A DNA stretch of 36,769 nucleotides from Jiulongibacter sp. (GTDB lineage: Bacteria; Bacteroidota; Bacteroidia; Cytophagales; Spirosomataceae), in the NCBI GenBank assembly GCA_024645245.1, contig JAHEBN010000021.1, positions 1 through 36,769 of the forward strand, in the 5' to 3' direction. Each line of letters begins with the position of its first letter. Within the stretch, counting starts at the first letter, position 1. The translations under genes and the position numbers were made by a program. The notes under the pieces were generated by a model. It saw nothing but the letters and a program-made list of their open reading frames with translations. It searched no databases and was not told where the DNA came from. Shown piece after piece: positions 28,163 to 36,761 of this stretch.

Positions 28163-29335
28163 ATGTCTGATCGCTATATGCAGCGGGGTGTTTCGGCCTC
28201 GAAAGAAGATGTCCACAAAGCCATAGAAAAACTGGATAAAGGCCTTTTCCCAAAAGCATTTTGTAAAATTTCACCTGATATTTTAGGTGGCGATCCCGAG
28301 TATTGCAACATCATGCATGCAGATGGTGCAGGCACTAAGACCTCGCTGGCATATCTGTATTGGAAAGAAACCGGCGATTTAAGTGTATGGAAAGGCATTG
28401 CACAAGATAGTATTATAATGAATACCGACGACCTGCTTTGCGTGGGTTGTACGGGTCCCATTTTGATGTCGTCTTCCATAGATCGAAATAAAAATAAAAT
28501 TCCGGGTGAAGTTATTGGTGAACTAATTAACGGCTCAGAAGAAGTGCTGGAAATGCTTCGTGAGAATGGGGTGGAAATCTACAGCACCGGTGGTGAAACT
28601 GCCGATGTAGGCGATTTGGTACGTACTATTACTGTGAATACAACAGTAATCGGCCGGATGAAAAGAGCCGACGTAATCTCCAATGATAATATTCAAGATG
28701 GCGATGTAATTGTGGGTCTGGCTTCTTACGGAAAAGCCAGCTACGAAACCGAATACAATGGCGGCATGGGCAGCAACGGACTTACTTCTGCACGCCACGA
28801 TGTGTTGGATAATAAATACGCCGAGAAATACAGGGAAAGCTATGATCCTGAAATTCACAGCTCCTTAGTATACTCCGGCAATAAACTGTTAACCGATAAA
28901 ATAGATATCGGAAATGGGGAAAAAGTAACCGCGGGTAAATTGATTCTCTCCCCTACCCGCACCTACGCACCGGTGGCCAAACAAATATTGGAGCAGTTGA
29001 AAGGGAAAATTCATGGCATGGTGCATTGTAGCGGCGGTGCACAAACCAAGGTCCTTCATTTTGTTGACAATGTGCATGTTATAAAAGATAATCTTTTCCC
29101 TATACCTCCTCTTTTCAAATTGATACAAGAGCAAAGCAGTACATCTTGGTCCGAAATGTATAAGGTTTTTAATATGGGGCATCGCCTTGAAATTTACCTT
29201 TCAGCCGAAAATGCAGCGAAAGTAATTGAAATAGCGAATTCGTTTCAAATAGATGCCCGTATAGTAGGCAAAGTGGAAAAATGGGAAGGTAAAAAACTAA
29301 CCATCGATTCCGAATTTGGTACATTTCAATATTGA
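28163..29335 (+). CDS. purM: Phosphoribosylformylglycinamidine cyclo-ligase (AIR synthase, PurM-like)
   Basis: 390 residues, longer than the ~345-residue classical PurM but usual for the Bacteroidota form. It converts formylglycinamidine ribotide to aminoimidazole ribotide with ATP in purine synthesis. N-terminal MSDRYMQRGVSASKEDV, IMHADGAGTKTSLAYLYWKETGD (the DG-GTK phosphate/ATP region), AQDSIIMNTDDLLCVGCTGP (D-V-MNTDD pattern) and GVEIYSTGGETADVGDLV (GGETA) are all clear. The C-terminal domain has ILSPTRTYAPVAKQIL and MVHCSGGAQTKVLHFVDN (in place of the usual HITGGG). A single gene by spacing; the altered glycine motif means a lineage-specific PurM or an AIR-synthase-related enzyme remains possible. 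Confidence 0.85.
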   Translation: MSDRYMQRGVSASKEDVHKAIEKLDKGLFPKAFCKISPDILGGDPEYCNIMHADGAGTKTSLAYLYWKETGDLSVWKGIAQDSIIMNTDDLLCVGCTGPILMSSSIDRNKNKIPGEVIGELINGSEEVLEMLRENGVEIYSTGGETADVGDLVRTITVNTTVIGRMKRADVISNDNIQDGDVIVGLASYGKASYETEYNGGMGSNGLTSARHDVLDNKYAEKYRESYDPEIHSSLVYSGNKLLTDKIDIGNGEKVTAGKLILSPTRTYAPVAKQILEQLKGKIHGMVHCSGGAQTKVLHFVDNVHVIKDNLFPIPPLFKLIQEQSSTSWSEMYKVFNMGHRLEIYLSAENAAKVIEIANSFQIDARIVGKVEKWEGKKLTIDSEFGTFQY

Positions 29336-29627: not shown

Positions 29628-31505
29628 ATGAAGAAAATCTACATTTTTTGCATTTTCTATGGCATCTCCTTAATTTCAAAGGCTCAGGTTGCAGAAAAAT
29701 TTGGCCAGGGAAACATTGGAAGCATCACAGTCACGGCCAGCACAAATGCATCCAAAGGAATAAATACTTTACTCCGCGACGGTTACTTACCGAACTTAAA
29801 TTCTGCTTCAAGATTTCTTTCTCAAGCAACTTTAGGAGCAAATATGTCTCAGATCCAGCAGGTGGCCGACCAGGGAATTGAGAAATGGCTGGATGACCAA
29901 CTGAACATGCCCAATACTTTTAGCACCGAAAGTTTTATTCGCACTCTGCACCAAAGAATAGTAGACTCATTGAATTTAACAGGTCCGGTGGAGCCCTATA
30001 CTATTTACAATGTAAACCTGAGTGATTGGCATTTTGATATTGCCTGGTTTCAAGGCAGTATGACTGCCCCGGATTTACTGCGGTGGCGGGTGGCTCTTGC
30101 ACTTAGTGAAATATTTGTAACCTCGCGGATTTCAGGATTTGGAAATAACCCGTATGCGATGTCAGATTATTACGATATCCTCTTGAAAAATGCTTTTGGA
30201 AACTACCGTTCTATGCTCGACAGCATAACTTACAGCCCCGCTATGGCTGTATACCTTACTTACATGAATAACCATGCCACAGCCACCGTTAATGGAAACC
30301 TGGTATTTCCTGATGAAAACTACGCCCGTGAAATCATGCAACTCTTTTCAATAGGATTGTATAAATTAAATATTGACGGAACAGAACAGAAAGACGGACA
30401 GGGCAATTCAATACCTACCTATAATAATAACGACATAGCAGGACTTGCAAAAGTTTTTACTGGCCTAAGTTGGCACGATGCCGAATACCTTGGAGATCGT
30501 GAAAATCACGAACAGGATTATACCAAAAGACTGAAATTCTTCCCTTTGGATAGTAGCGATGCCAAGATACGTTGGTGGAAAACTAACCCGACCATAACAA
30601 ATGGCCATGAACCCGGGGGAAAAACATTTTTGGGAACTACTATAGGGCAAGGTCGCACGGTACAACAAGGCGAGGCAGACATTCAGGATGCTTTAAATGT
30701 AATATTTAATCACCAGAATGTAGGCCCATTTATAGCCAGAAGGCTCATTCAAAGGCTGGTAAGCTCTAACCCTTCCCCAGCTTTTATTTCAAGAGTTGCC
30801 AGTAAATTTAATAATAATGGGTCGGGAGTGCGTGGTGATTTGAAAGCTGTTATAAAAGCTATTTTATTAGATCCTGAAGCTCGACAATGCCATGGCCCTG
30901 AAGAAACAAGCACCGGAATGTTACGGGAACCATTTGTAAGGTACACAAACCTGGTGAAAGGCCTTAATCTAGTTTCTACCAATGGTACCTACCGAAATGT
31001 AATGAATGAGATTTATGATAATGCCGAACAGCGACCTCTGAACTCACCTACTGTTTTTAACTTTTTCCAGCCTGATTACATTCCGGATGGGGACCTAAAA
31101 AATGCAGGAAAATTTGGTCCGGAATTTCAACTACTTAATTCACAAACACTTACAGGTTATTTTAATGCCTTAAATGAATGGCTAATTAATAATGATCCGA
31201 TTGATTATTATGGATATTTTGGAAATGAAACTTACAAAGAAGCGGAAGAACCCAGATTTGATCTAACCGCAGATTTTCCTATTTGCAGCAATAAAAATCT
31301 TCCTCAATTGCTCGACAAGTATAATCTGATATTAGCACATGGAAGTCTTTCACAGCAAAGTTTGAATAATATAAAATATGCCATTGAAAACATGCCATAC
31401 CGGATTGATAATATGGGAGTTCCAAATCAGGATGATATGCTCAGAAGAATCCGGATTGCGATCTTTTTAATAATGGCTTCACCTGACTACCTTATAAACC
31501 GATGA
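29628..31505 (+). CDS. Secreted DUF1800 family protein
   Basis: 625 residues. A signal peptide (MKKIYIFCIFYGISLISKAQ) fits an exported protein and supports the ATG. DUF1800 landmarks in order: ASRFLSQATLGANMSQIQQVADQGIEKWLDDQLNMP (about 60-95), WRVALALSEIFVTS, NYAREIMQLFSIGLYKLNIDG (about 230-250), DIAGLAKVFTGLSWHD, VGPFIARRLIQRLVSSNPSPAFISRVA (about 367-393), LKAVIKAILLDPEAR and MLREPFVRYTNLVKGL. The family has no assigned activity and almost always sits next to a DUF1501 gene, as here (4-nt ATGA overlap). First gene of a four-gene operon of surface proteins. Confidence 0.93.
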   Translation: MKKIYIFCIFYGISLISKAQVAEKFGQGNIGSITVTASTNASKGINTLLRDGYLPNLNSASRFLSQATLGANMSQIQQVADQGIEKWLDDQLNMPNTFSTESFIRTLHQRIVDSLNLTGPVEPYTIYNVNLSDWHFDIAWFQGSMTAPDLLRWRVALALSEIFVTSRISGFGNNPYAMSDYYDILLKNAFGNYRSMLDSITYSPAMAVYLTYMNNHATATVNGNLVFPDENYAREIMQLFSIGLYKLNIDGTEQKDGQGNSIPTYNNNDIAGLAKVFTGLSWHDAEYLGDRENHEQDYTKRLKFFPLDSSDAKIRWWKTNPTITNGHEPGGKTFLGTTIGQGRTVQQGEADIQDALNVIFNHQNVGPFIARRLIQRLVSSNPSPAFISRVASKFNNNGSGVRGDLKAVIKAILLDPEARQCHGPEETSTGMLREPFVRYTNLVKGLNLVSTNGTYRNVMNEIYDNAEQRPLNSPTVFNFFQPDYIPDGDLKNAGKFGPEFQLLNSQTLTGYFNALNEWLINNDPIDYYGYFGNETYKEAEEPRFDLTADFPICSNKNLPQLLDKYNLILAHGSLSQQSLNNIKYAIENMPYRIDNMGVPNQDDMLRRIRIAIFLIMASPDYLINR

Positions 31506-33013
31506 ACAGACGAAATTTTCTGAAAACTGCCGGATGTGGAGCCATGAGCTCGGCAACTATGCTCAATACTATTGTTAACCTGGGTGCAATAAAAGGTGCC
31601 TTGGCAAATACACATTTTGCCGATACCCAAACTGAAGATTACAAGGCTCTGGTATGTGTAGTTTTAAGTGGAGGAATCGATTCTTACAATCTGCTGATTC
31701 CTCGTGGCACCACCGTTGGAGGTGATAATGGTTATAATGATTATATGGCCATGCGAACCGACCTCGGCATTAATAATGTAAACAATTTATTGGCCCTAAA
31801 TAATCCGCAATTGGTTGGCATCCGTGGGAAATCAAGTGCGTATTCCTCGTTTGGCTTACATCCCATGATGAGTGGAATGCAAACCCTATTTAACTCGGGT
31901 AAACTGGCCATGATGGCCAACATTGGAACACTGGTAGAGCCAATAATTGACGCCAATGATTTTGAAAACGGTAACAAAAAAATACCACAAGGTATCTATT
32001 CACACTCAGACCAGTTAATGCAATGGCAAACCTCTGTACCACAAAGCAGAGATGCGGTAGGCTTTGGTGGTCGACTGGCCGATTTGCTGCATGCCACCAA
32101 TACCAATCAGCAAATTTCAATGAATATTTCACTAGATGGAAAAAACCTTTTTCAAAGAGGAAACGATCTCGCCGAATATTCCATTCGAAATGATATCAAT
32201 GCAAACAATGTGGGGATTGAGGCTCTACCAAGTTGGTGGAGTAGCTCCGGATATATGACCGAATTACGTAATAATGCAGTAGATAGTCTGGTATCTCAAA
32301 CTTATGCTAATCTTTTGCAAAAGACCTATTCGGCAACTGCTAAAACTTCTATCGCATCTTTTGAAATATTTAAAGAAGCATTAAAAAAAGTGCCGTCTTT
32401 CACAACACCGTTCCCGACGACGCGGCTGGCGGATGACCTTAAGGCTGTTGCCAAAGTGATGAGTGTCCGTAACGATTTAGGTGCCAAAAGACAGATTTTT
32501 CTGGTAAATATTGGTGGCTGGGATATGCACGATAATCTTTTAAATGGTTTGAATTCCCTTTTACCTCAGGTTAGTCAGGCATTGAAAGCTTTTTATGATT
32601 TAACAGTAGAATTAGGGATTTCAGATAAGGTAACCACCTTCACTATTTCTGATTTTGCCCGTACCATTACTTCAAACGGACAAGGTTCTGATCATGCCTG
32701 GGGAGGCAATATGATGGTAATGGGTGGTGCTGTGAATGGTGGTAAAATTTATGGTGCTTTTCCCAAGATGGATATTTTTAACAATCCTCAGAATGTGTCA
32801 TTCCGGGGTAATTTTATTCCATCTGTTTCTACCGATGAGCTTTATGCCGAGCTGGCACTTTGGTACGGGGTAAGCCCCAGCGACTTATGCTACGCATTAC
32901 CTAATTTAGGTAATTTTTATAGTTATTCGGCAGGAAACTATCCACTTGGACTTATGAATATGTCGGGAGGAGTTTCCAATGTAGATCGACCACAAAATTG
33001 TTTGATTTATTAA
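31502..33013 (+). CDS. DUF1501 family protein with twin-arginine-like leader
   Basis: 503 residues. MNRRNFLKTAGCGAMSSATML is a Tat-type leader (RRNFLK). Family motifs: VCVVLSGGIDSYNLLIPRG (the GG-D-YN-L-P block), FGLHPMMSGMQTLFNSGKLAMMANIGTLV, YSHSDQLMQWQTSVP, FLVNIGGWDMHDNLL, and TFTISDFARTITSNGQGSDHAWGGNMMVMGGAVNGGKIYG near the C-terminus. The last block, with Asp-His followed by WGG, resembles metal-site regions of the alkaline phosphatase/sulfatase superfamily, to which I recall DUF1501 being linked; no activity is established. Starts 4 nt inside the DUF1800 gene and ends 3 nt before the PA14 gene. Tat export implies it folds, perhaps with a cofactor, before crossing the membrane. Confidence 0.93.
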   Translation: MNRRNFLKTAGCGAMSSATMLNTIVNLGAIKGALANTHFADTQTEDYKALVCVVLSGGIDSYNLLIPRGTTVGGDNGYNDYMAMRTDLGINNVNNLLALNNPQLVGIRGKSSAYSSFGLHPMMSGMQTLFNSGKLAMMANIGTLVEPIIDANDFENGNKKIPQGIYSHSDQLMQWQTSVPQSRDAVGFGGRLADLLHATNTNQQISMNISLDGKNLFQRGNDLAEYSIRNDINANNVGIEALPSWWSSSGYMTELRNNAVDSLVSQTYANLLQKTYSATAKTSIASFEIFKEALKKVPSFTTPFPTTRLADDLKAVAKVMSVRNDLGAKRQIFLVNIGGWDMHDNLLNGLNSLLPQVSQALKAFYDLTVELGISDKVTTFTISDFARTITSNGQGSDHAWGGNMMVMGGAVNGGKIYGAFPKMDIFNNPQNVSFRGNFIPSVSTDELYAELALWYGVSPSDLCYALPNLGNFYSYSAGNYPLGLMNMSGGVSNVDRPQNCLIY

Positions 33014-33016
33014 GCT

Positions 33017-35407
33017 ATGAAACAAAATTTACTTAAAACAGCCTTAATTATAATCATCTTATCCTTTTCCGGAAGGGTATTTTCTCAGAATTGCGTGGGC
33101 CCTGGCGGACAAGTGCAGTGGAGCTACTGGATGGGTTTTACGAGTTTTCCGGATAGTTCAGATCTGGCTATTTTAGAGACCTTTCCTTCCCGACCCGATG
33201 GTTTTCAAATGCTGGGCAAGCTTCAGACTCCACCAAATTTCAGTGACTATTTCACTTCCATGATTCGGGGTTATATAAGTGTGCCAACCACAGGAAATTA
33301 TTATTTCAATATCACCGGAGACGATGATTCCCGCTTTTTCCTCAGCACAAATGATTCGCCGGCAAATTTAAAGAAAAAGGCCTGGGTTTATTCTTACACC
33401 GGAATAGCAGAACATTACAAAGATTCAACTCAAACCTCGGTTTTGACGACATTAGTTGGCGGACAGAATTACTATTTCGAAATGTACAATTCGGAAGGAG
33501 GCGGTGGCGATCATATGACACTTTACTGGCGTAAACCAAATACGCCTGACCTGGATACCAATTGGCTCGTTGTGGATTACAATTACATTAAATCTTATAC
33601 CTGCACCCAGAATTGCCCTCCCAGAGGAACCAGCTGCAATGATAATAATCCCCTTACCAGTAATGATCAACAAGACGGGTTTTGTAATTGTGTGGGTGAT
33701 TATACCAGTAACAACTACTGCGTTGGAGAGCGTGGGAAAGTAGAAGCCTATTATTTTGACAATATTCCGGGCAATTACGTGGAATACGATTTGTTAAACT
33801 CTCCCAAATTTCCCCTGATGCCAGACCGAAAAGAGTACCTGAAAGGAGCATCTGGCCCATTGGAACCCTATACCCGCGATGAATATGGTACATTATTGCA
33901 GGGTTATATTACTGTTCCGGTCACTGGGCTCTATGAATTTGTAATTACCGGAGATAATCAGACATTTTTCTACATGAGCAAAAATGATTCGATAGAATAT
34001 AAACAATATCACCAGGCACTTGTATTCTATGGAATTGGTGAAACCGATATAAACAGTACATCTTTTCAATATATCTCACCCTTAACACTGGAAAAAGGCA
34101 AATATTATTACTACGAATTCAGGCACAAAGAAAACGGCTGGCGTGATCATTTTAACCTGTACTGGAAAACCCCTTTTCACGAACAAAAAACATGGAAACA
34201 GGTTCCGGCCTTTTACCTTTTTGACTACGATTGCGAATTATCCTGCATAGCTCAGGGCACCCCTTGCGATGACGGAAATGCATTTACCAATAACGATCAA
34301 TTTGATGCCAACTGCAATTGTGCAGGTACACCATGTAATGGACCGGATTGTGACGACAGTATGGCTAAATACAGCTTTTACGAAGAATGTGCATCCACAA
34401 ACAACCTGGTAACCGATCCGGCTTATTCCTGGTATACCTGTGCCGGCGGTCAGCCAAACCCTAATGCGGCAAGAAGTGCGAATACGCGTTGGATAAAATA
34501 CGACTTCGGGTATCAATATAAATTTCAGGGCAGTAGGATTTGGAATTACAATGTACTGAACGACACAGACAAAGGCTTTAAAAACGTGGTAGTAGATTAT
34601 TCTGTGGATGGAAATTCATGGCAGCCACTGGGTGGTACCTATAGCTGGCCTCAGGCACCGGGTAACTCCGATTACGGAGGTTTTCCAGGACCAAATTTTA
34701 ATGATATAAAGGCCAGATATGTCTTAATTTCTTCTATCGATAATTGGGGTGATGCAAGTTGCTCTGGTTTTAGCAAAATAACTTTTGATGCGATTCATTG
34801 CGACAATGATGGTACTCCGTGCGACGATAAGGATCCTTTAACTACTTACGATAAATTTGACAACAATTGCAATTGCAAAGGTATTGATATCAACTGTGCC
34901 AACGACACCTTAAATTTGAGTTATCCGAGTTTAGCTGATGGAGCTTTTAAGGCTAAAAAACAAATCACGGCCCAAAGTCTTGTGCCTGGTTCTAATAATA
35001 TTAGTTTTACAGCCGGAAATAGCATTGTGCTACTTCCGGGTTTTAAGGCCGACAATACTGCTGTTTTTTCTGCCAAAATTGAAGATTGTCTTCAAACAGC
35101 TTTTGTAAACAATGAAATCAACAGCTTGAACTCAATCGGGTCTGAAAACAAAACTATTTTGAACGATGACCCTGAAAATGACAAGATAAAAAAGATAATT
35201 TTCAGGTTAAATGAACCCGGAAATGTAACTTTAAAATTATTGGACAGTAAAGGTAAAAATATAGTAACTATTATTGACCAGTACTATGAATCATTAGGTA
35301 CACAAATAAAGCTTTTGCCGATTCAAAAACTATCGAAAGGAACTTATTGGATCGAATTAAATATTAATGGTAATACGGTAAAAGAAAAATTAGAAATTAA
35401 TGGATAA
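33017..35407 (+). CDS. Surface multidomain protein: two PA14, discoidin-like, 3-coathanger and T9SS type A sorting domain
   Basis: 796 residues. Signal peptide (LLKTALIIIILSFSGRVFSQ), PA14 domain 1 (about 26-190: MIRGYISVPTTGNYYFNITGDDDSRFFLS), a Cys-rich linker (204-227), PA14 domain 2 (235-400: GYITVPVTGLYEFVITGDN), a second linker (414-437), a discoidin/F5-8C-like domain (about 440-595: RWIKYDFGYQYKFQGSRIWNYN, VVVDYSVDGNSWQPLGG), a third linker (599-622), a 3-coathanger module (627-691) and a T9SS type A tail (about 725-796, NVTLKLLDSKGKNIVTIID, LSKGTYWIELNINGNTVKEKL). PA14 and discoidin domains bind carbohydrates, so surface glycan attachment or recognition is likely. It has no catalytic domain. 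Overlaps the next gene by 8 nt and follows DUF1501 after 3 nt. Confidence 0.9.
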   Translation: MKQNLLKTALIIIILSFSGRVFSQNCVGPGGQVQWSYWMGFTSFPDSSDLAILETFPSRPDGFQMLGKLQTPPNFSDYFTSMIRGYISVPTTGNYYFNITGDDDSRFFLSTNDSPANLKKKAWVYSYTGIAEHYKDSTQTSVLTTLVGGQNYYFEMYNSEGGGGDHMTLYWRKPNTPDLDTNWLVVDYNYIKSYTCTQNCPPRGTSCNDNNPLTSNDQQDGFCNCVGDYTSNNYCVGERGKVEAYYFDNIPGNYVEYDLLNSPKFPLMPDRKEYLKGASGPLEPYTRDEYGTLLQGYITVPVTGLYEFVITGDNQTFFYMSKNDSIEYKQYHQALVFYGIGETDINSTSFQYISPLTLEKGKYYYYEFRHKENGWRDHFNLYWKTPFHEQKTWKQVPAFYLFDYDCELSCIAQGTPCDDGNAFTNNDQFDANCNCAGTPCNGPDCDDSMAKYSFYEECASTNNLVTDPAYSWYTCAGGQPNPNAARSANTRWIKYDFGYQYKFQGSRIWNYNVLNDTDKGFKNVVVDYSVDGNSWQPLGGTYSWPQAPGNSDYGGFPGPNFNDIKARYVLISSIDNWGDASCSGFSKITFDAIHCDNDGTPCDDKDPLTTYDKFDNNCNCKGIDINCANDTLNLSYPSLADGAFKAKKQITAQSLVPGSNNISFTAGNSIVLLPGFKADNTAVFSAKIEDCLQTAFVNNEINSLNSIGSENKTILNDDPENDKIKKIIFRLNEPGNVTLKLLDSKGKNIVTIIDQYYESLGTQIKLLPIQKLSKGTYWIELNINGNTVKEKLEING

Positions 35408-36761
35408 AAAAGTCCTCTTTATTTTATTGTTTAATATTCAATTCATAAAAGCTCAGGTAAATACAGTTACCCTAAATCCAGCTAAAGACAATACAATTTT
35501 TTCTGAAAACAGTACGTATAGCGATGGAGCAGGTATTTTATTATATGCGGGTAAAATAAATAATGGGTCAGGAGTAAGACGTGCATTATTGCAATTTGAC
35601 CTGAGCTCAATTCCGGAGGATGTAATAATTAACGATGCAAAACTTGAACTCTATGTTTATAAATCTAAACAAGCATCAAGCACGGTTCATAATTTTTCAA
35701 TTCACCGGTTAAATGCAGATTGGGGCGAAGCAGGTTCAAATGGAAGTGGATCGGGTGCCCCAGCACAAAACGGTGATGCTACCTGGTCAGATAAATTCTA
35801 CCCCGGGCAAAATTGGACAGCTACCGGAGGAGATTTTAATGCAAACGCCTCTGCTACCACAACAGCCTTCTATTCATATGTTGAGTTAAAAAAATCTACC
35901 TGGACAGGAAATGATGTAATTGCTGATGTAAATTATTGGCTAACGAATCCTTTAAATAATTATGGCTGGATTTTGATTGGCGAAGAAAACAATAATGGGT
36001 CTGCCAAGGGTTTTGTTTCTCGCAATATGGGTAATCCATATACTTCTTTCAGGCCGGCACTTACCATTACATATACCCTTAATATTCCCGTTTCTGTTAT
36101 TATCAATGAAGTAAATTCTCAAAAAAAATGGGTGGAAATCTATAATCCAACCAGTAATCCGATTGACCTGAACGGATATTACCTGGCAAATGCAAATCAG
36201 GAAATACCTTTGAATGATATTGGCATCAAAATTCTCCACGGAAACCTCAATTTATTACCCGACCACTATCTGCTAATCGAATGGAGTGAAATTGGCAGCA
36301 CAACAGGTGAGCTTGCTTTATATAAAGGAAATCCGACCTCTTCTCAAATCATAGATTATTTGCAATATGGTGCATCAAAACAGATGCATTCGGCCGATGC
36401 GGTGACAGCAAGTGTATGGGATAATTCTTCTCTTTTTTTAACCCAGAATTCCGATTTAGAAAAAAGTTATTCCCTGGATACTCTACAAAATTACTTTAAT
36501 GGAAGTGCGACAAACAGTAGCAATTGGCAACTTCAATATGCCACACCAACTTTTAAAAATAACCCTTGTCCCGGTAGTTTATTCTTAACAGGTGATATAA
36601 TTCCTGCTTATTACCAAAGCAAAAATTCATCATCACTAAATGGCCTGATTGATAATAATGAGAATATCAGCCTTCGAGCTGGCAATTCCATATTGTTAAC
36701 TAACACTCTGGAGGTAAAATCGGGAGCTATTTTTAAGGCTGAAATTGGAGGCTGTCAATAA
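35400..36761 (+). CDS. Secreted DNRLRE / lamin-tail-domain protein ending in a GCX 3-coathanger module
   Basis: 453 residues. Signal peptide (KKVLFILLFNIQFIKAQ), then a DNRLRE-type jelly-roll (about 19-226: KDNTIFSENSTYSDG, RRALLQFDLSSIPEDVIINDAKLELYVY, VSRNMGNPYTSFRPALTITY), a lamin-tail-like (LTD) domain (231-388: VIINEVNSQKKWVEIYNPTSNPIDLNGYYLA, IIDYLQYG) and a closing ~60-residue module (390-453) that ends the protein at Gly-Cys-Gln. This Gly-Cys-X end is the hallmark, as I recall it, of the 3-coathanger stack domain. No catalytic domain and no T9SS type A tail. Its ATG overlaps the previous gene by 8 nt, so it is the coupled last gene of the operon; only 8 nt of window follow. Confidence 0.87.
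   Translation: MDKKVLFILLFNIQFIKAQVNTVTLNPAKDNTIFSENSTYSDGAGILLYAGKINNGSGVRRALLQFDLSSIPEDVIINDAKLELYVYKSKQASSTVHNFSIHRLNADWGEAGSNGSGSGAPAQNGDATWSDKFYPGQNWTATGGDFNANASATTTAFYSYVELKKSTWTGNDVIADVNYWLTNPLNNYGWILIGEENNNGSAKGFVSRNMGNPYTSFRPALTITYTLNIPVSVIINEVNSQKKWVEIYNPTSNPIDLNGYYLANANQEIPLNDIGIKILHGNLNLLPDHYLLIEWSEIGSTTGELALYKGNPTSSQIIDYLQYGASKQMHSADAVTASVWDNSSLFLTQNSDLEKSYSLDTLQNYFNGSATNSSNWQLQYATPTFKNNPCPGSLFLTGDIIPAYYQSKNSSSLNGLIDNNENISLRAGNSILLTNTLEVKSGAIFKAEIGGCQ

What the first reader, a model, noticed from the sequence alone, without database searches (positions are those of the whole stretch)
29628..36761. Four-gene DUF1800-DUF1501-surface-protein operon as a candidate undescribed surface system
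Seen: four same-strand genes with 4-nt overlap, 3-nt gap and 8-nt overlap: a secreted DUF1800, a Tat-leader DUF1501, a PA14/PA14/discoidin protein with a T9SS tail, and a DNRLRE/LTD protein. Known: DUF1800 and DUF1501 usually sit together and have no assigned activity; PA14 and discoidin domains bind glycans; T9SS places proteins at the cell surface. Inference: the operon builds a surface complex in which a DUF1501 protein (possibly an alkaline-phosphatase-superfamily hydrolase) and DUF1800 act with two adhesive scaffold proteins, perhaps on a sulfated or phosphorylated polymer. DUF1501 appears to leave by Tat while the PA14 partner leaves by Sec/T9SS, so the pair would meet outside the inner membrane.
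Basis: partly seen in the sequence, partly recalled or inferred. Interest (0 to 1): 0.68.

Follow-up and report, generated by a model that had tools for sequence, protein, structure and literature searches.

The report
DUF1800–DUF1501–discoidin surface operon
Three neighbouring bacterial genes of unknown function turn out to travel together in many Bacteroidota – a helical protein, a protein with the fold of sulfate- and phosphate-cleaving enzymes but an apparently altered active site, and a dedicated discoidin-type surface protein – while the fourth gene is only an occasional extra.

Summary
The four genes and their spacings are exactly as reported. The conserved core is three genes: DUF1800, DUF1501, and a discoidin (F5/8C) protein. 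Gene 3 directly follows DUF1501 in 33 of 33 close operons; gene 4 follows in only 6 of 33. Of 77 readable named loci found by DUF1501 alone (best 80 of a capped list), 60 have an adjacent or fused discoidin/PA14 gene. The discoidin subfamily looks private to the system: 35 of 35 hits in 150 same-family genomes lie just downstream of this DUF1501, and the six strong hits in 395 genomes of the phylum are the six genomes with the matching DUF1800.

DUF1501 has an alkaline-phosphatase-superfamily fold (Z 18.6). Its active site seems altered: a metal-ligand position is probably an invariant Phe and the nucleophile position probably an invariant His (inference, one weak alignment disagrees).

Export wiring differs from ordinary Bacteroidota pairs, where DUF1501 usually carries its own T9SS tail (16 of 21) and DUF1800 mostly has no leader. 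Here 0 of 81 DUF1501 have a tail. This shift happened about once on the tree.

Activity and substrate are unknown; a surface glycan is the best guess.

The parts
29628..31505 (+). gene 1: DUF1800 protein, 625 aa, Sec-type leader, mostly helical model without a PDB fold match
   Evidence: PF08811 275.6 bits; pLDDT 90.4
31502..33013 (+). gene 2: DUF1501 protein, 503 aa, alkaline-phosphatase-superfamily fold, no T9SS tail
31508..31525 (+). twin-arginine motif R3-R4-N-F6-L-K of the DUF1501 leader
   Evidence: R3, R4, F6 in 151 of 152 distinct DUF1501 proteins, the other a gap; TatC in the genome
31679..31690 (+). D60..N63 of GG-x-D-x-x-N after strand 1 (mostly S and E/D in the 36 divergent DUF1501)
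32003..32005 (+). H168, first residue of a predicted helix, at the inferred nucleophile position
   Evidence: 152 of 152; helix 168-177; equivalence to the nucleophile is inference from motif spacing
32519..32530 (+). W-D341-x-H343 motif
   Evidence: D341 and H343 in 152 of 152
32648..32662 (+). S-D384-F385-A-R387, directly after a strand; aligned with the DN/DH motif of sulfatases and phosphodiesterases in the better alignments
32690..32695 (+). D397-H398
   Evidence: D in 150 and H in 151 of 152
33017..35407 (+). gene 3: PA14-PA14-discoidin-GCX-T9SS-tail protein with a Sec-type leader, 796 aa
33242..33541 (+). best PA14 stretch (aa 76-175); the other lies about aa 229-410
   Evidence: two stretches; second range is the query piece
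34394..34801 (+). discoidin (F5/8C) domain, the partner domain
34946..35089 (+). GCX_COOH domain (aa 644-691)
35195..35392 (+). T9SS type A sorting tail (aa 727-792, below cut-off in this copy)
   Evidence: 41 of 62 gene-3 proteins match at E <= 0.01
35400..36761 (+). gene 4: DNRLRE + LTD + C-terminal GCX_COOH protein, 453 aa; optional accessory
   Evidence: present in 6 of 33 close operons

Best explanation
Genes 1-3 are a conserved three-protein exported unit of Bacteroidota. SHOWN by computation: fixed gene order, near-exclusive co-occurrence of this discoidin subfamily with this DUF1501/DUF1800 clade, one natural fusion, and the alkaline-phosphatase-superfamily fold of DUF1501 with a family-wide invariant polar set (H168, D341, H343, D/E384, H398). 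INFERRED: DUF1501 leaves folded by Tat with a bound metal, DUF1800 leaves by Sec, and the two form a complex. The discoidin protein is carried by T9SS to the surface, and its conserved discoidin face binds the complex or its polymer, taking the place of the T9SS tail that most ordinary DUF1501 proteins carry themselves. GUESSED: the complex modifies or tethers a cell-surface or extracellular glycan through metal-dependent phospho- or sulfo-ester chemistry; PA14 and gene 4 are add-on glycan-binding parts.
For: Order DUF1800-DUF1501-gene 3 in 33 of 33 close operons, DUF1800 visible in 32 (the other is a contig edge). 60 of 77 readable named loci found by DUF1501 alone have an adjacent or fused discoidin/PA14 gene; DUF1800 is directly upstream in 78 of 80. 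Discoidin profile A6: 35 hits in 31 of 150 genomes, all 35 downstream of the DUF1501; 31 of 32 genomes with that DUF1501 have it, G034 being cut at a contig end. Phylum: six strong hits, the same six genomes as the strong DUF1800 hits. Fusion discoidin-SprB-GCX-DUF1800 in L176. Fold: VIA Z 18.6, rmsd 3.3 over 250 residues, phosphodiesterases; hhalign match to the genome's own sulfatases at E 1.3e-8 for 36 divergent, mostly PSD1-neighbour DUF1501. Tail and leader: Pfam T9SS tail in 16 of 21 ordinary DUF1501, 0 of 81 in this survey; in 41 of 62 discoidin proteins; leaders.
Against: No physical or functional data. The tail label needs one change on the tree, support only 56, so 'the discoidin protein takes the place of the tail' rests on about one event. 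How a tail-less DUF1501 would reach the surface is unexplained; the pair could stay in the periplasm. Over 102 rows, 2 show both a tail and a neighbouring tail-like gene and 19 show neither, 13 of these outside Bacteroidota by title or at contig ends; the partner label there is loose. Direct hhalign of this clade with sulfatases or phosphodiesterases is weak (E 0.018 and 0.04), so kinship in this clade rests on the model, on the divergent relatives and on one of 81 members that hits PF01663 (E 0.0049). Foldseek TM-scores to its best PDB hits are low (0.24-0.49 in the rows shown, apart from short fragments lower still). The hydrolase residue set looks incomplete, so DUF1501 may only bind.
Confidence: 0.6

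Rival explanations
1. The discoidin/PA14 protein is an ordinary T9SS adhesin that is merely co-transcribed; DUF1501 and DUF1800 work as a periplasmic pair without touching it.
For: DUF1501 of this survey has no T9SS tail (0 of 81), gene 3 has its own leader and tail, and 12 of the 17 loci without a discoidin gene have titles outside Bacteroidota or without a phylum, so the pair can do without it.
Against: In the searches made the discoidin subfamily was found with the pair in 35 of 35 same-family hits and in all six strong phylum hits; one weak phylum hit (32 bits, G416) was not examined. Its loops are conserved across families, and it is fused to DUF1800 in L176.
Confidence: 0.25
2. DUF1501 is a catalytically dead or binding-only alkaline-phosphatase-fold scaffold; the unit is an adhesin or structural surface layer, not an enzyme.
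For: A metal-ligand position is probably Phe in 152 of 152; the nucleophile position appears to be His (inference).
Against: H168, D341, H343, D/E384, R387 and H398 are conserved in at least 151 of 152 sequences, 36 of them divergent, which is unusual for a mere scaffold.
Confidence: 0.3
3. All four genes form one obligate system.
For: 8-nt overlap of genes 3 and 4; gene 4 also follows gene 3 in L078, L079, L092, L093 and L105.
Against: Gene 4 does not follow gene 3 in 27 of 33 close operons, nor in any of the 80 named loci except L118.
Confidence: 0.05

Closest known systems
DUF1501 + PSCyt2/PSD1 (DUF1549/DUF1553) cassettes of planctomycetes, Verrucomicrobia and Bacteroidota
   Same: A DUF1501 gene next to a partner of unknown function. 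Five such loci lie in the same genome (C14, C115, C150, C159, C242: PSD1 by Pfam model; DUF1501 beside it). PSCyt/PSD proteins of Verrucomicrobia carry carbohydrate-binding modules including PA14, and F5/8C (figure legend in PMC5615132, passages read).
   Different: Partner here is DUF1800 without cytochrome c; the glycan-type domains sit on a separate T9SS-type protein; D60/N63 instead of mostly S/E.
DUF1501/DUF1800 pair in bacterial chitin synthase operons (Pectobacterium, Dickeya, Brenneria, Agrobacterium vitis; PMC5122149, passages read)
   Same: Same two families in one operon, twin-arginine motif on DUF1501, link with a polysaccharide.
   Different: No discoidin or T9SS partner in the passages read; chitin synthase was not looked for in the present loci.
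Ordinary Bacteroidota DUF1800-DUF1501 pairs (C146 of the same genome; L249-L268)
   Same: Gene order; RR leader on DUF1501.
   Different: DUF1501 usually carries its own T9SS tail (Pfam 16 of 21), DUF1800 mostly has no leader, no discoidin gene in the neighbours shown.
Nucleotide phosphodiesterases and sulfatases (alkaline phosphatase superfamily)
   Same: Fold and, for divergent DUF1501, profile similarity.
   Different: DH/DN motif probably D/E-F; no Ser/Thr/Cys at the inferred nucleophile position.

Membership tests
DUF1501 (PF07394) | Pfam score over the curated cut-off | tested here: met
   104.4 bits against 27
DUF1800 (PF08811) | Pfam score over the curated cut-off | tested here: met
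   275.6 bits against 26.1
Alkaline phosphatase superfamily (gene 2) | fold | tested here: met
   Foldseek E 4.6e-05; VIA Z 18.6, rmsd 3.3, 250 aligned
Alkaline phosphatase superfamily hydrolase (gene 2) | DH or DN metal-ligand pair after a central strand | tested here: inconclusive
   D/E384-F385 follows the strand and aligns with DN (E 1.3e-8, divergent DUF1501 against sulfatases) and with DH (E 0.0056), i.e. not met; the weak alignment of this clade with sulfatases (E 0.018) puts D397-H398 there instead, i.e. met
Alkaline phosphatase superfamily hydrolase (gene 2) | Ser/Thr/Cys nucleophile at a helix start | tested here: inconclusive
   motif spacing and helix start point to H168, but the profile alignments do not align that stretch reliably and no coordinates were at hand
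F5/8 type C (discoidin) domain (gene 3) | Pfam score over the curated cut-off | tested here: not met
   26.8 against 28.2 bits for the window itself; 60 of 62 gene-3 proteins match at E <= 0.01; the window scores 157 bits with profile A6, of which it is a member
T9SS substrate (gene 3) | C-terminal sorting domain | tested here: inconclusive
   window 22.4 and 18.6 bits, below cut-offs; 41 of 62 gene-3 proteins match at E <= 0.01; SprA in genome
Tat substrate (gene 2) | twin-arginine motif in the leader, and TatC in the organism | tested here: met
   RRxF in 151 of 152, TatC; but Pfam TAT_signal and TIGR01409 score below cut-off and export itself was not tested
PSCyt2-PSD1-DUF1501 cassette | PSCyt2/PSD1 partner | tested here: not met
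   partner is DUF1800; DUF1800 and PSD1 share at best a weak module
Chitin synthase operon | adjacent chitin synthase gene | not tested
   neighbours were not scanned for it

The most novel reading that the evidence does not exclude
DUF1501 is an alkaline-phosphatase-fold enzyme class with an invariant histidine at the nucleophile position and Phe in place of a metal ligand, working with a helical partner family (DUF1800 or PSCyt2-PSD1) on extracellular glycans. Bacteroidota have rebuilt its delivery: from one Tat- and T9SS-tagged protein carrying a leaderless partner to a split system in which a private discoidin protein supplies surface targeting in trans.
Probability: 0.22. Interest if true: 0.85.

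Novelty: new variant of a known kind. Interest (0 to 1): 0.6.

Why it matters
DUF1501 and DUF1800 are widespread and uncharacterised. A dedicated third partner, a fold with a defined set of invariant residues, and two alternative export layouts make the family testable: which residues to mutate, which protein to pull down, and in which compartment to look. If the leaderless DUF1800 of ordinary pairs really rides on a Tat- and T9SS-tagged DUF1501, it would be a folded complex crossing both membranes.

Tried and rejected
Four-gene obligate system: rejected, gene 4 in 6 of 33. PSD1 and DUF1800 as one family: only weak support (Pfam DUF1800 19.4 bits, below its cut-off of 26.1, on the PSD1 part of the C242 protein; hhalign E 0.012 and 0.016 over 80 and 74 columns; E 0.095 with the narrow profile, at another place), left as a lead. 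PDB relatives of gene 2 by sequence: none. PDB fold of DUF1800: no match at E <= 0.001, best Z 3.4; that does not show a new fold. Active-site geometry: not possible, no coordinates. Other hhalign pairs: ordinary DUF1501 against sulfatases E 0.0054; part of that output was cut, so the pair of the broad DUF1501 set with sulfatases was not seen.

Literature: DUF1501 10 papers, DUF1800 4, both 2, PF07394 1, PF08811 2, COG4102/COG5267 2, DUF1553/DUF1549/PSCyt2 2, Tat + T9SS + hitchhiking 1. Passages read: PMC5122149, PMC6653060, PMC7563939, PMC5615132, PMC6946804, PMC6329079, PMC4452313, PMC4960237, PMC2754498. Listing only: PMC4982196, PMC5418858, PMC5587647, PMC5888151, PMC3597751, PMC9251779. 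None of the passages read describes the discoidin partner; subscription papers are outside this library.

Rows dropped or passed over: alignment A5 held one wrongly placed row (L118, range guessed by me); it was rebuilt without it as A6. DUF1800 alignment A4 holds 71 of 80 loci, those with a copy of 550-700 aa. The 20 ordinary stretches are among the best remaining hits, one per genome; G293, G162, G280 and second copies were passed over; one stretch (L252) had no DUF1501. Gene-3 set A10 holds 61 ORFs with a stop codon plus the window; one of them (L144, 125 aa) looks truncated. The leader measure uses the longest ORF, so some starts may be wrong, and its 76 proteins are all long DUF1800 of the 80 named loci, including loci without a discoidin gene. 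The partner label counts any near same-strand gene with an xPNP motif near its end; at least L158 and L167 seem to be counted as partnered through stray motifs in unrelated small ORFs, so 66 is an upper figure.

Full report
OBSERVATION. The four ORFs and their overlaps are as reported, with the named domains. Some are slightly below curated cut-offs in this copy: F5/8C 26.8 against 28.2 bits, T9SS tail 22.4 against 27, LTD 33.9 against 34.3. The window is a complete contig that ends 8 nt after gene 4, so anything beyond cannot be seen. In the nearest relative (L078, DUF1501 73% identical) the next gene is on the other strand.

IS IT A UNIT? A search with the window's DUF1501 over 150 genomes of the same family found a compact clade in 32 genomes: the window's own, others at 61-73% identity over the full length, and two cut copies (G096, G034). 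After five copies at 45-46% come only much weaker matches (E 1.7e-18 and worse). In 31 loci of that clade holding 33 operons, the PA14/discoidin/GCX/T9SS gene directly follows DUF1501 in 33 of 33. DUF1800 directly precedes it in 32 of 33, the other being a contig edge. The DNRLRE/LTD gene follows gene 3 in 6 of 33: the window, L078, L079, L092, L093 and L105. In the 45-46% group (L108-L112) gene 3 is absent downstream in the four that can be read, and an upstream gene carries PA14 or GCX in three of five.

WIDER SURVEY. A scan of named genomes with a DUF1501 profile, blind to neighbours, kept the best 80 of 574 confirmed stretches, from Spirosomataceae and Leadbetterellaceae (Runella, Emticicia, Lacihabitans), Saprospiraceae, Flavobacteriaceae (Algibacter, Flavivirga, Hyunsoonleella) and others (some family names). 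DUF1800 is directly upstream in 78 of 80. The discoidin gene is directly downstream in 56, a contig-cut PA14 gene in 1, a discoidin gene upstream in 2, and fused to DUF1800 in 1; three loci end at the contig edge and 17 have none. Twelve of those 17 bear titles outside Bacteroidota or without a phylum (L142, L154, L158, L162, L167, L168, L169, L171, L173, L178, L194, L195), judged; MAG titles can be wrong. The five Bacteroidota among the 17 are L139, L174, L189, L190 and L192. Gene 3 varies in build: F5/8C in 60 of 62, PA14 in 26, T9SS tail in 41, GCX in 26. The smallest form (about 250 aa) is leader, discoidin, tail. The constant element is the discoidin domain, not PA14.

SPECIFICITY. The profile of this discoidin subfamily (A6, 36 rows) hit 35 places in 31 of 150 same-family genomes at E <= 1e-6. 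All 35 lie on the same strand downstream of the DUF1501: 34 within 1.8 kb, and the second copy of a duplicated gene at 3.9 kb. Of 32 genomes with this DUF1501, 31 have it; the exception, G034, is cut at a contig end. In 395 genomes of the phylum six hits scored 154 bits or more; these are the six genomes that had DUF1800 matches above 360 bits in a search of 296 genomes. One further hit was weak (32 bits, G416) and was not examined. Such searches score only part of their first candidates, so weak homologues may be missed. In L176 discoidin, SprB repeat, GCX and DUF1800 are one ORF.

WHAT THE PROTEINS ARE. DUF1501: AlphaFold model pLDDT 83.0, pTM 0.84. The best VIA match is a snake venom phosphodiesterase, Z 18.6, rmsd 3.3 over 250 residues, followed by NPP enzymes, with PafA and choline sulfatase lower; Foldseek's best are sulfatases and LtaS-type enzymes, at low TM-scores. 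A set of 36 divergent, mostly PSD1-neighbour DUF1501 aligns with the genome's own sulfatases by hhalign at E 1.3e-8, Prob 95.6; ordinary DUF1501 give E 0.0054 and this clade alone 0.018. One of 81 members hits PF01663 at E 0.0049. In 152 distinct DUF1501 sequences H168, D341, H343, F385 and R387 are invariant, position 384 is D or E in all, and H398 is found in 151. The D/E-F pair directly follows a strand and aligns with the DN motif of sulfatases and the DH motif of phosphodiesterases (E 0.0056), so a ligand His/Asn seems to have become Phe. Against this, the weak alignment of this clade with sulfatases (E 0.018) slides D397-H398 onto the DN motif. By motif spacing (C-x-P-S-R...T-G of sulfatases, recalled, against H-D-P-A...T-G of PSD1-type DUF1501) and by the predicted helix start at 168, the nucleophile position appears to be H168; this is inference. 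DUF1800: confident, mostly helical model (pLDDT 90.4), no PDB match.

EXPORT. Twenty stretches around other Bacteroidota DUF1800 hits were fetched; 19 of them hold 20 DUF1501 genes. With the genome's own C146 copy that makes 21, of which 16 have a Pfam T9SS tail. The C146 copy has no Pfam hit but looks tailed by eye. Of the 21 DUF1800 ORFs in those stretches, 16 have no 12-residue stretch of mean hydropathy 1.56 or more in the first 55 residues; five do, at 1.56, 1.67, 1.68, 2.27 and 2.87. Of 76 long DUF1800 in the 80 named loci 72 have one of 1.67 or more. None of 81 DUF1501 (the window and the 80 named loci) has a tail. Over 102 rows: tail without partner 15, partner without tail 66 (an upper figure, the label is loose), both 2, neither 19. 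The tail needs one change on the DUF1501 tree, support 56; the partner label needs 9. So the complementarity is striking but not replicated by independent events. It suggests that ordinary DUF1800 is carried by the Tat- and T9SS-tagged DUF1501, and that here the discoidin protein provides the surface end. TatC and SprA are present in this genome.

WHAT IS KNOWN. The library searched holds 10 papers naming DUF1501, 4 naming DUF1800 and 2 naming both. One discusses the pair: chitin synthase operons, function unknown (PMC5122149, passages); the other names both in a table of type 6 effectors (PMC6653060, passage). PSCyt/PSD proteins carry carbohydrate-binding modules including PA14, and F5/8C (PMC5615132, passages); five PSD1 genes of this genome lie next to DUF1501. 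No passage read describes the discoidin partner.

VERDICT. A real three-gene unit, not described in the papers found here, with an optional fourth gene. Coupling of the three genes is close to certain, surface location likely, enzymatic role open.

Noticed in passing
31535-31537 (C12 of DUF1501): A cysteine 8 residues after the twin arginines is conserved in 114 of the 115 sequences that have a residue there and in at least 90% of A3. It does not fit a lipobox (judged by eye), and its role is unexplained.
   Followed up: partly
L013:9793-11811 (C242 of the same genome): A PSCyt1-PSCyt2-PSD1 protein weakly matches the C-terminal part of DUF1800 over its PSD1 region (19.4 bits, below cut-off; hhalign E 0.012): the two partner families of DUF1501 may share a module.
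   Followed up: partly
L081, L088 (Emticicia-type), L101/L123: The DUF1800-DUF1501-gene 3 operon is duplicated in tandem in L081 and L088, and gene 3 alone is duplicated in L101/L123.
   Followed up: no
L136:11419 onward: After gene 3 two further GCX-bearing genes follow (1245 and 258 aa), another accessory extension.
   Followed up: no
L189, L192: DUF1800 without a visible leader, no discoidin gene and a tail-less DUF1501 in Puteibacter and a Lewinella MAG: a possible third layout.
   Followed up: no
L261: Two DUF1800-DUF1501 pairs of different type lie in tandem, separated by a 672-aa gene with a T9SS-like tail.
   Followed up: no
28163-29335: A gene that looks like PurM (name recalled, not tested) lies upstream; similar genes lie upstream of the operon in L078, L079, L097 and L107.
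   Followed up: no
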